In this document: positions 738-64,000 of the stretch, one piece after another
Numbering within the stretch: the first letter of the stretch is position 1
Layout of the letters: every line of letters begins with the position of its first letter
Assembly: GCF_051622035.1 (NCBI RefSeq)
Contig: NC_135356.1
Coordinates: forward strand, 26,070,839 to 26,134,838
DNA length: 64,000 bases
Direction of reading: 5' to 3'
Origin: Arctopsyche grandis
Taxonomy: Eukaryota; Arthropoda; Insecta; Trichoptera; Hydropsychidae
The notes under the pieces: model-generated
Databases searched by the model: none
The model's input: only the letters and a program-made list of their open reading frames with translations
Told to the model about the DNA's origin: nothing
Made by a program: the position numbers and the translations under genes

Positions 738-1145
738 CTGGATGCGGCAGTGTGTTGCTGGCTCGTTGTTCGGCTATGTTCAGAAGGTCTCTGGTTGCGG
801 CAGTGTGTTGTTGGCTCGGCGTTCGGCTATGTTCAGAAGGTCTCTGGATGCGGCAGTGTGTTGTTGGCTCAGCGTTCGGCTATGTTCAGAAGGTCTCTGG
901 TTGCGGCAGTGTGTTGTTGGCTCAGCGTTCGGCTATGTTCAGAAGGTCTCTGGTTGCGGCAGTGTGTTGTTGGCTCGGCGTTCGGCTATGTTCAAAAGGT
1001 CTCTGGATGCGGCAGTGTGTTGCTGGCTCGTTGTTCGGCTATGTTCAGAAGGTCTCTGGTTGCGGCAGTGTGTTGCTGGCTCGTTGTTCGGCTATGTTCA
1101 GAAGGTCTCTGGATGCGGCAGTGTGTTACTGGCTCGTTCGGCTGG
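738..1145. repeat. 53-bp minisatellite, about 7.5 units
   Basis: A unit starting CTCTGGATGCGGCAGTGTG and ending ATGTTCAGAAGGT recurs every 53 bp with a few variant positions (gga/ggt, tgctggctcg/ttggctcggc/ttggctcagc). Since 53 is not a multiple of three, each unit is read in a different frame. All three forward frames stay open, so the long frames here are a property of the repeat and not evidence of protein. The array ends in unique sequence near 1145. A near-identical array is at 49205-49670. Confidence 0.9.
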
Positions 1146-1351
1146 TTGATCTTCCAAGTCCGCGTAGTGTAGTGGTGGCAGGTCAGGAGCTGGATGTCGA
1201 CTGGTCTGCTGCTGTGTGTCGACTGGCATTGTTTGGGTTGTACCTCCTTTTATAGTGTTTCTGGTATCGCCTGAACCATGGTGGTGGTTGTTGATGCGTA
1301 AGCGAGGAATGTGCTTTTGTCGAGGGGTAGAATTTTCTGGAATGATTGGCG

Positions 1352-1572
1352 CCGTTCCGCTCGATGTAGTTTAATGGCTGCGGTGTGCTTCGACCGGTTT
1401 GGTTCCGCTCGACTGGTAGGGGTGTTCCACTTGAGTTTAGTTTAATGGCTGCAGGTGTGCTTCGACTGGTTTGGTTCCGCTCGAGTGGTAGGGGTGGAAC
1501 TTTTTCGAAGGTTTTGGCACCGTTCCGCTTGAGTTTAGTTTAATGGCTGCAGGTGTGCTTCGACTGGTTTTG
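1352..1572. repeat. Second degenerate minisatellite, about three units
   Basis: Three unequal units (roughly 50, 72 and 100 bp) share the core GTTTAATGGCTGCAGGTGTG followed by CTTCGACTGGTTT and a GTTCCGCT motif. Spacing varies because some units carry extra bases. No coding capacity is supported. Repeated at about 49877-50097. Confidence 0.75.
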
Positions 1573-2046
1573 GGAATGTATTCTGCGTCGCAGTAAATGT
1601 TTTTGATGAATGTGACGAGATTCCCACAAACTAATAGGTTATTTACGTAAAGCATCCGACTCAAACACAAAACAGAAAACGTTTAGATTCATTCAAATGT
1701 AGCATGTATCAATGGCATTGACTCAATGCGAGTATCTAAAAATGTGTCGATTTGAAAATGTAATTGATATACATTTCTTCAATTTTCCCAAAATTTCCAT
1801 CGCCCAAAGTTCCCAGGGAAAAAAACCCGGTTTATTCCCAGGTCTTTTCCCGCTGGCACATCTCTAGCCATACATAGTGAGTGTGGCAAGCACGTAAATA
1901 CAAATCTCCAACACTCCCCATTGATTAGTGCTTGCCGATATATACAGTACAATATTAAAATACAAAATTCAAAACTCTCACCGAGTTTACATATACATCA
2001 TACATTCAATGATAATCAATTAAATATCTTCTTCTTCTTCATGTGC
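1573..2046. other. Non-coding spacer
   Basis: No gene is seen. Around 1815-1868 a stretch rich in GGGAAA/TTCCC, ending in GGCACATCTCTAGCC, resembles the terminus of an old DNA transposon, but no partner end was found. Confidence 0.5.
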
Positions 2047-2672
2047 TGTTCCGACCAATTGCCTTATGGTCGGCTTTCATGACCTTACGACCTCGAAACT
2101 GCCCGATGTTTTTTGTACTGGCCGCATTACCCCCGGTACACAGTCAGCGCTTTCAATTGAGCGCTTTTGAAGTGCGCGTTTCGAGATACTGAATTTCGTA
2201 TGAAAGCGCCCGAACGCGTACACACTCGGCCGACTGTGCCGACCGTTTCGACCGTTGCCGAGTGAACACATTTCTCGCAGTTCGTTTCCCCACTCCTGAA
2301 TCACCAGTTCGAGACTGGTGATGTTCATGATACATGGAGACGAGCTCCAGTATTCGGCCGGGATTGAAGTGAGGTAGCCTGGTCTGTCTTCGTATCGAAG
2401 GCATACAACGTAGCCATGTGTGTTGGTACTATAACCTCAAAACCACGCCGTGCTTGTTTGTTTGTACACAAACTTCGCCCCCCCTTTCCCTCTGCTTGCT
2501 CTCTGTACATGTTAATATAATCATTATAAAAAGATTAAAGACCTGTTTTAATTGATACATAATCTCCCGCCATTTTCCTTCTCCCCACATTACACTCACA
2601 CACATGCTGTACTTGAGGGAGAGGGAGACAGAGAGCCGACCACCAGCAAAGACCACGGATACGACTTTCTAC

Positions 2673-61184: not shown

Positions 61185-61210
61185 ACTAACAGCTCGTACG
61201 AGCTGTTAGT
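61185..61210. repeat. 26-bp perfect palindrome (second copy)
   Basis: Copy of 12661-12686. Confidence 0.9.
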
Positions 61211-61599
61211 GTTCAATCTGTTTGCCTTTTTGATCAGCTCAATACCATCGGTGAACATGTTTGGGTTGATATTCGCCTAAATAATTTTTCTCTTTTAATA
61301 TGCGTTTTATATTTTCCTCCCAGTGAATCACCTCATATAATTAGTTAATTTTTTTCAAACTTGCAAAAGAACTTAAGGTTTTTGGCTGGCGGGAGGGTTA
61401 ATTCTAGGAGTTTGAGTAATGAATTAATTTTTATTCCCGAATTATTAAATATGTATTTGTGTATATATTTGCAAATGTGTGTACGTGTATGTATATTTTT
61501 GTGTATATGTAATTATTATTGGCCAGGAAGGCCCATGGGGTTTACCTGCTAGACCTTCCTGGTATAAATATATAAATAAATAAATAAATTTCGATAATC
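61211..61599 (+). mobile_element. LINE fragment with 3' end (third copy)
   Basis: Copy of 12687-13075. Confidence 0.7.
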
Positions 61600-61695
61600 G
61601 TTGATAAATGATTTTGTTTTTCGGTAAGTGGATGCACACTTCACGAAATTAACTGTTGCATATTGGACATCGACGAGATTCGCCTGAACCAAGCT

Positions 61696-64000
61696 ATGGA
61701 TCTATCGAATATTATGGGGATGTTGACACCTTTAGAAAGTTTAGAGCAAAAAGCGATGGATTTTATTATTGATAATTTTGGGATTGTGAGTAGTGTCGAT
61801 TGTAAAAAATAGTATTATTTCTTAATTAACAATAAATAATTTATATTTACACATATTTCAGTTGTACAAAACGCCAGAGTTCTGTCGTTTACCGGATTCT
61901 CTCGTATTGAAAATTTTGAGATCAGATCGATTAAATGTGTCTTCCGAAGAAGAAGTCTTCCATGCTGTGAGACTTTGGATCACTTTTGACGAAAATAATC
62001 GTAAAGAAAAATTAATAGATATGCTAAGCTCAGTGAGACTAACATTGTTGTCCTTGGAGGTAAATAATTTTGTGTTTCCCTATCACTGACGTATTTTTCT
62101 ATCACTCGATAATAATGTTATATAAATTTATAATATTATTATTACATGATTTTTATTATTATATAACATTATAGAATATTAATTTTTATTTTCAGTTTTT
62201 CCTCCTTGAAGTTGTGGAATTATGCGAGCCATTCGAAGAATGTATGATCAACCTCAATCAAGCTGTTTATGAAATGATGATACCCAATCATCTCAGCAAA
62301 CCCAAATATCGCATGGGGAGAGCAAAACTGGCAGTCATTGGTGACTCTGAACTCACAGACGTGAGTATGGTGTATAAATGCTATACCCTATTTGACTTAC
62401 CATCAGCAATTGGAAAACTCTAGACTTCATCTTCTAAACTCTAGAAGATTCATAGTACATATATATATATATATATATATATATATATATATATATATAT
62501 ATATATATATATATATATATATATATATATATATATATATATATATATAAATTTTGGGTAACATTTTGCTGATGAATAAGAATCGTATATTTTCCTTCTG
62601 ACTGCCAAGTTAACTGAAATGAGTATAAATTTAAATTGAATATGTACATGTTTTTAGGCGTCCAGTACTATCGATATCTACGATGGAGTCAGAAATACGT
62701 GGACCCAATCAAAAAAACTAAATATCGACCGTGCGAGGTTCGGTTCAGTCGTTGTTAACGATTGGATATTAATCATCGGTGGATGCAGACCGATAAGAAT
62801 ATGTGAAGCGATAATCGGGGTACCTCTTAGCGAAGTATGATTCAATTTATTTTTAAACGTGTTGTAAATTGGACCCTAATAACTAATGTGCAAATTAGTA
62901 ATTACCAAATTACTGATGTGATGTAGTTCACCAATATTTTGATCTACATGTAACAAATTTTTAGATAGGTATAATTAATTACGTTACATCTAGTTGACTA
63001 GCTATAAGTTAGAGTTTGATATCCTATAACAAAATCCAAGTGGCGGAATACTATTCACATGTAGATCAAATCAATTATTTATTTTATAAACTAATATTGT
63101 AGAAATATATACCTACATAATATAGATAGAAATACATATTTATAGTATAATCGAAATAATTTATCTTTATCGTTTGTAGGTAATATATATAGATTTAAAG
63201 GATGGCCAGATTCACGAATTGAAATCATTAAATGGACCACGATTCAACTTTCAAGTGGCAACAATTTCAGACGATTCATCTACTGACGTGTACGTCATCG
63301 GCGGTTTTAGTGATTATAAAACTGCATTGACGACAGTGGAGAGGTAAAATCTAAAACTTTAACTGTTATAAAATAGTAATCCCTATCTAAAATCAAATCT
63401 CTGAACAGGTGGAACAGCGAGAAGCAGATCTGGAAAAAAAATATCGCTCGTATGCTCACGATAAGTATTCATCCCGGTGTATCCGTCATCAACGATAATA
63501 TATATCTGACAGGTGGCTTAAGAACTATCAACTTAAAGATTTATTGCACCGACCTAGTACAAATGTACTCACCAAAAAACAATAAATGGATATATTGCAC
63601 GCCCATGATCCAGAAAAGAGCAAATCACTCGGTAAATGGAAACTAGAATTTAAGCTTGTTTCGCTGTCAGTTTATGGTTTTTGGCGATTTCGAATTCCAT
63701 AAGTCGTACTTAGTTGATAGATATTAAATTAAATTGAAGACTCCCAATCAGCTGCTTGGTTTGAAAGTCCTATAGACTAGTAAAATTTGAATCATTCATG
63801 GAAATGTTAATATAAGGCATAAGTGGTATTTCGTTGATAAATATTAAATTAAATTGAAGACCTCCAATCAGCCAGTTGGGTAGAAAGACATTTCAGACAT
63901 ATAGTCCCTATAATATCAGATGATAGTGACCATATAAATTACTTGAATCATTCATGGAGTTGTGAATATAAGGCCAGATTCTGATTATATTCTCATCAAA
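61696..64000 (+). CDS. Kelch-family protein, BTB-less, copy 3, cut by window end
   Basis: Exons seen: 61696(or 61612)-61785, 61862-62059, 62196-62360, 62658-62834, 63180-63343, 63409-63631. Exons 7 and 8 lie beyond the window. The coding sequence matches copy 1 without a difference that I could find, and exon 1 has the intact GTTGACACCTTT. It gives the BACK domain and the first three kelch blades (GG doublets IIGGC, VIGGF, LTGGL). The identity with copy 1 goes along with that of the whole 49265-64000 segment. Confidence 0.8.
62458..62549. repeat. (TA)n microsatellite in kelch copy 3 intron 3
   Basis: About 90 bp of TA, a few bases different in length from copy 1. Confidence 0.95.

What the first reader, a model, noticed from the sequence alone, without database searches (positions are those of the whole stretch)
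741..64000. About 14.7 kb direct repeat at a 48.5 kb offset, nearly identical
741-15480 and 49265-64000 agree almost base for base, including dead transposons and their lesions. Visible differences are TA-tract lengths and a handful of bases. Introns and AT-rich spacer usually drift, so either a very recent large tandem duplication or an assembly artefact (second haplotype or graph error placed in tandem) is needed.
Basis: partly seen in the sequence, partly recalled or inferred. Interest (0 to 1): 0.75.

Follow-up and report, generated by a model that had tools for sequence, protein, structure and literature searches.

The report
Tandem array of kelch-like genes
The two nearly identical 14.7 kb stretches belong to neighbouring units of a longer run of tandem repeats, each unit carrying two copies of a kelch-like gene, so this looks like a young, still-changing gene array rather than a single duplication or a simple assembly slip.

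Summary
In detail: window 737-15478 and 49262-64000 align over 14,742 columns with one substitution and two AT-tract length differences. But the window shows only part of it. In the genome (G000:C2) the pair belongs to four direct repeats at C2:26.028-26.217 Mb, in 270 kb without N. Each repeat is a dimer of monomers A and B, each with a BACK-Kelch (KLHL-type) gene; a ninth and a diverged tenth copy follow. Diagnostic sites alternate A-B four times; A-A and B-B pairs differ by 0.02-0.16%, A-B by 1.0-1.2%. A hAT with 8-bp target duplications sits in dimers 2 and 3; dimers 1 and 4 keep the empty site. SNP splits give the same grouping and contradict two collinear haplotypes laid in tandem. Best reading: a real, recent, recombining tandem array. 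No reads were available, so the copy number is unproven, and alleles from pooled animals are not excluded. Against the tenth gene the reading frame is held while residues change about as fast as silent sites. Ordinary in kind; the gene family is the interesting part.

The parts
737..15478 (+). Left copy of the finding's repeat: start of dimer u2 (the homology to u3 goes on to about window 19977)
49262..64000 (+). Right copy: start of dimer u3, cut by the window end
679..737 (.). TA tract standing where u3 has about 1.9 kb; secondary change at the u1/u2 joint
47360..49261 (.). About 1.9 kb present before u3 and not before u2; holds a TA tract (48049-48231) and, near 49187, the likely original dimer joint (its right side is shared with the left edge of u1)
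2673..5393 (+). hAT transposon with CTTTCTAC target duplications at 2665-2672 and 5394-5401; filled in u2 and u3, empty in u1 and u4
   Evidence: coordinates counted from the printout
51198..53918 (+). Same hAT in u3, same flanks
13106..17419 (+). Monomer M3A: BACK-Kelch gene, eight exons 13106-13261, 13338-13535, 13672-13836, 14136-14312, 14658-14821, 14887-15109, 15635-15824, 17274-17419 (472 residues; 5' part not found; splice sites chosen by eye)
35460..41123 (+).
61197..64000 (+). Start of the M5A gene block (third A monomer), cut by the window end
737..1136 (.). 53-bp tandem repeat at the start of u2 (49198-49661 in u3)
19978..21080 (.). 1.1 kb insertion found in u2 only, with about 165-bp terminal direct repeats and a TTGCT target duplication; u1 and u3 empty sites printed, u4 aligns across without it

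Best explanation
A real, young tandem gene array in a eukaryotic chromosome. A BACK-Kelch (KLHL-type) gene was duplicated in tandem into A, B and further monomers. An A-B pair was then multiplied as a block to four dimers, most likely by unequal crossing-over between misaligned repeats, with gene conversion or recent spread keeping the A halves nearly identical. Single units then gained their own transposons, microsatellite changes and deletions. Shown in the assembly: order, orientation, A-B alternation, graded divergence, and unit-specific insertions with target duplications. Inferred: the recombination mechanism, and that each assembled unit exists in the animal.
For: Four full-length ~100% matches of a 1.5 kb probe, all in C2; nine gene-block matches at 97-100% plus a diverged tenth, same strand; 55 of 88 two-state ungapped columns alternate A/B through eight monomers; hAT filled in u2, u3 and empty in u1, u4, with 8-bp duplications; other unit-specific insertions; SNP tree ((u2,u3),(u1,u4)) agreeing with the hAT, 11 splits against 3 and 0; no N in 270 kb; two control genes, Nop14 and eIF3D, each with one full locus.
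Against: No reads, so depth and spanning were not tested. Dimers differ by only 0.07-0.16% over their collinear parts, which could be allelic. The A/B alternation itself would also arise if one dimer were falsely repeated. Three SNP splits conflict with the tree. A 2.75 kb inverted pair before u4 could be a fold-back artefact. Nop14 has weaker partial matches at a second place, and two controls are few.
Confidence: 0.8

Rival explanations
1. Heterotype false duplication: a second haplotype, or several from pooled animals, was set in line, so some of the four dimers are alleles and the true array is shorter.
For: Dimer-dimer divergence of 0.07-0.16% is compatible with alleles. False tandem duplications are reported for one psyllid assembly made from pooled insects (PMC11659978, passages).
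Against: No gap between units; such gaps are a listed mark of false duplications on one scaffold (PMC9516828, passages). Two collinear two-dimer haplotypes would give u1u3|u2u4 splits: 0 of 14 seen, and the hAT also groups u2 with u3. A, B, M9 and M10 differ too much from one another to be taken for alleles of one gene. Other arrangements (three plus one, or four pooled haplotypes) are not excluded.
Confidence: 0.14
2. Homotype error or graph loop: one true sequence walked twice, so the finding's pair is a copy of itself.
For: Only one substitution in 14.7 kb between the pair.
Against: Over their whole collinear part u2 and u3 differ by 32 substitutions in 44.9 kb and by inserts of 1.1 kb (u2) and 7.5 and 3.2 kb (u3), two of them with clear target duplications. 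A repeated walk would copy these.
Confidence: 0.04

Closest known systems
KLHL (BTB-BACK-Kelch) genes
   Same: BACK domain followed by Kelch repeats over separate exons; joined protein matches kelch propellers, KEAP1 and KLHL chains among them
   Different: No BTB exon found in the array; fast residue change against M10
Tandem segmental duplication with a higher-order (dimeric) repeat unit
   Same: Direct adjacent copies, alternating monomer types, near-identity between dimers and larger distance between monomer types. The comparison with satellite higher-order repeats is recalled, from no call
   Different: The unit is large (43-59 kb for the first three), carries genes, and differs between copies by transposon insertions
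Heterotype false duplication in assemblies (PMC9516828, passages)
   Same: Adjacent near-identical copies in one assembly
   Different: No gap, unit-specific insertions with target duplications, and relationships that do not fit two collinear haplotypes

Membership tests
KLHL (BTB-BACK-Kelch) | BACK domain | tested here: met
   window 13302-13562, PF07707 E 1.1e-18, 67.6 bits, cut-off 20.9
KLHL (BTB-BACK-Kelch) | Kelch repeats C-terminal of BACK | tested here: met
   Kelch_1 over its cut-off on three exon pieces (28.3, 36.2, 23.8 bits; cut-off 20.1) and under it on a fourth (18.0). Six blades are a count by eye, not a test
KLHL (BTB-BACK-Kelch) | N-terminal BTB domain | tested here: inconclusive
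KLHL (BTB-BACK-Kelch) | Binding to Cullin-3 (recalled) | not testable with these tools
   needs biochemistry
Heterotype false duplication | Gap between the copies | tested here: not met
   no N in C2:25,990,001-26,260,000
Heterotype false duplication | Allelic, collinear relationship of copies | tested here: not met
   0 of 14 two-to-two splits fit u1u3|u2u4; tested for two haplotypes of two dimers only
Heterotype false duplication | Half read depth and one-copy k-mers | not testable with these tools
   no reads held
Tandem duplication array | Direct, adjacent, multiple copies with graded divergence | tested here: met
hAT transposon (window 2673-5393) | 8-bp target duplication with matching empty site, and hAT dimerisation domain | tested here: met
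   CTTTCTAC twice in u2 and u3, once in u1 and u4; Dimer_Tnp_hAT E 6.6e-8

The most novel reading that the evidence does not exclude
This genome carries a very large, still-amplifying set of KLHL-type genes whose kelch faces are being changed by selection, as in an arms race or a recognition system, and this array shows it at work: genes multiply in A-B blocks, A halves are homogenised, some units lose the frame, and where the frame is kept the protein changes about as fast as silent sites allow.
Probability: 0.3. Interest if true: 0.6.

Novelty: new member of a known kind. Interest (0 to 1): 0.4.

Why it matters
A suspected assembly fault becomes a readable record of how a gene array grows: block duplication, unit-specific transposon marks and uneven homogenisation can be ordered within about 210 kb. 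It also points to a large KLHL-type family in this genome, where fast protein change with a kept frame raises the question of what the kelch propellers bind. And it shows that gene counts at such loci need read-depth checks.

Tried and rejected
Naming the organism. Its 474-Mb assembly was built from unitigs with N50 29 kb, and three later assemblies are 267-283 Mb (PMC11659978, passages); neither sits well with 475.67 Mb and 270 kb free of N, so I dropped the name. Three other psyllid assemblies are about 588-660 Mb (PMC12203342, passages). The species stays unknown.

A BTB exon: not found. Rfam families at gathering score and tRNAs: none in the window. Accounts in print of such an array or family: psyllid+kelch+tandem+genome, 0 papers; kelch-like+gene family expansion+tandem+hemiptera+genome, 0; four of five of kelch-like/expan/aphid/tandem/KLHL, 86 papers, 12 listed; kelch+insect+gene famil+expanded+chromosome-level, 5; kelch+Hemiptera+gene family+expansion+BTB, 3; three of five kelch/selection terms, 294, 10 listed; kelch-like+psyllid+duplicat, 0. 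For these I saw listings and starts of abstracts only; none of the rows listed looked on point. This does not show that nothing is in print.

Corrections to my own steps: the notebook entry says 481 codons; it is 472 residues plus stop for the array genes.

Full report
Observation. Window 737-15478 and 49262-64000 align over 14,742 columns with 1 mismatch and 3 gap letters: one substitution and 1-bp and 2-bp length changes at two AT tracts. Upstream, 1-678 matches 46682-47359 with 4 mismatches. An older copy lies between: 35460-41123 matches 12673-18309 at 98.15%, with further patches from 27442 to 42040.

Whole genome. The window is G000:C2:26,070,839-26,134,838 of a 475.67 Mb genome in 189 contigs. 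A 1.5 kb probe (window 8000-9500) has 73 listed matches: four full-length at ~100%, all in C2, with starts 45.9, 48.5 and 55.8 kb apart; the others are a ~0.7 kb reverse-transcriptase piece dispersed at 92-97% and short pieces (40 of 1,768 candidates scored, so a lower bound). C2:25,990,001-26,260,000 was read (and the window) and holds no N. Self-comparison gives four direct units: u1 from 28.4 kb, u2 from 71.6 (window 737), u3 from 120.1 (window 49262), u4 from 178.8 to about 216.6 (coordinates minus 26 Mb). The finding's pair is u2 and u3. Past the window it runs to 19.2 kb with 2 mismatches; the whole collinear part is 44.9 kb with 32 substitutions, and the six dimer pairs range from 0.07 to 0.16%.

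Monomers and gene. Each unit holds two monomers. A 2 kb probe over the gene block (window 12700-14700) has nine matches at 97-100% between C2:26,037.6 and 26,232.9 kb, all on the + strand, and a diverged tenth at 26,250.5-26,255.6 kb; the other listed matches are partial, dispersed-repeat or TA pieces (40 of 1,236 candidates scored). The gene is of BACK-Kelch type: BACK E 1.1e-18, and Kelch_1 over its cut-off on three exon pieces and under it on a fourth; a joined protein matches kelch propellers in the PDB. With splice sites chosen by eye, eight exons give 472 residues. The frame is open in 7 of 10 copies (M1A, M3A, M5A, M7A, M8B, M9, and M10, which stops one codon earlier) and broken in 3 (M2B: one base fewer in the sixth exon; M4B: two bases fewer in the first; M6B: sixth exon absent). 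The one- and two-base breaks may be sequencing errors. No BTB exon was found.

Higher-order structure. In the nine-monomer alignment 88 ungapped columns have two states. Of these, 55 separate M1, M3, M5, M7 from M2, M4, M6, M8 (32 with M9 on the B side, 23 on the A side), 21 are private to M9, and 12 show other patterns. A-A pairs differ by 0.02-0.05%, B-B by 0.02-0.16%, A-B by 1.0-1.2%. So an A-B dimer was multiplied, not single monomers.

History marks. A hAT element (window 2673-5393) is flanked by CTTTCTAC on both sides in u2 and u3; u1 and u4 carry CTTTCTAC once and no element. u3 carries a 7.5 kb insert with an AACCGC duplication, and u1, u2 and u4 align across that place without it. Between u3's B monomer and u4 lies a 3.2 kb LTR element whose LTRs agree at 926 of 926 positions; the matching places after u1 and u2 lack it. 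u2 carries a 1.1 kb insert with a TTGCT duplication, absent from u1 and u3 (printed) and u4 (aligned across). Over 34,090 columns compared in all four units there are 49 variable sites: private 10 (u1), 6 (u2), 2 (u3), 17 (u4); splits 11 u1u4|u2u3, 3 u1u2|u3u4, 0 u1u3|u2u4. Columns within 5 of a gap were left out before this count. The tree ((u2,u3),(u1,u4)) fits the hAT. Variation is uneven: 5 of 14,431 columns in one A-half segment (S2) against 26 of 7,980 in a B-half segment (S4) (Fisher P 4e-8, which treats sites as independent although the S4 sites are bunched). Conversion or recent spread of one A type would explain this; neither was tested further. The joint before u3 (near window 49187) shares its right side with the left edge of u1 and is the likely original one; before u2 stands a TA tract, and before u4 a 2.75 kb inverted pair. 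The edge at 737 is thus a later lesion.

Real or artefact. For: no gap, the marks above, relationships that do not fit two collinear haplotypes, no near-identical full-length copy off C2 among the listed matches, M9 and M10 as further steps, and two control genes each with one full locus (Nop14 on C12, with four weaker partial matches on C3; eIF3D on C13). Against: no reads; dimers are close enough to be alleles; A-B alternation would also follow from a falsely repeated dimer; a pooled sample could have added units, as reported for one psyllid assembly (PMC11659978, passages). PMC9516828 (passages) names half or very low depth, gaps, discordant linked reads and one-copy k-mers as marks of false duplication; only the gap test could be made here.

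Gene evolution. Between M3A and M10, dS is 0.20 and dN 0.18, ratio 0.93. The exons have 2 indel events over 1,416 aligned positions against 75 over 3,530 outside (Fisher P 5e-9; in the first exon, in frame). M10 has no stop in the first 471 codons where a mean of 7.8 is expected under random change; 0.0003 of 20,000 simulations had none. So the gene looks kept, yet its residues change about as fast as silent sites. A vs B is 18 nonsynonymous to 2 synonymous, not significant. Genome-wide, 151 BACK matches were reported with 150 of 340 candidates scored; of the 150 listed, 79 lie in clusters with neighbours at most 100 kb apart. The best-scoring relatives outside the array are 59-63% identical over part of the BACK stretch.

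Verdict. A recent, recombining tandem array of KLHL-type genes with a dimeric unit: a new member of a known kind. The finding is correct as seen and the duplication reading is favoured, but the window showed only two of at least four units, and the copy number awaits reads.

Noticed in passing
G000, e.g. C10:1,793,671-2,045,916 (14 BACK matches) and C6:2,573,632-3,010,717 (8): BACK-domain matches are very many in this genome (150 listed, all over the cut-off) and 79 of 150 lie in clusters of 100 kb spacing or less; several listed matches hold in-frame TAG or TAA.
   Followed up: partly
window 12192-12552 against M10 (C2:26,249.5-26,249.9 kb): About 360 bp without a difference between M3A and the tenth copy, while flanks differ by several per cent; possibly a conversion tract or a recently shared insert.
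   Followed up: no
C2:26,173,177-26,178,839: A 2.75 kb inverted pair at 99.5% around TA tracts just before u4; a real palindrome or a fold-back artefact.
   Followed up: no
window 45090-47405: Long open frame with DUF1759 and a weak aspartyl-protease match, as in BEL/Pao retrotransposons (family name recalled); 252-653 and 46933-47334 are the matching pieces before u2 and u3.
   Followed up: no
window 48394-48438: A run of 45 T inside the 1.9 kb stretch present before u3 and not before u2.
   Followed up: no
window 8372-9089: Reverse-transcriptase piece with at least 36 dispersed relatives at 92-97% in the genome.
   Followed up: no
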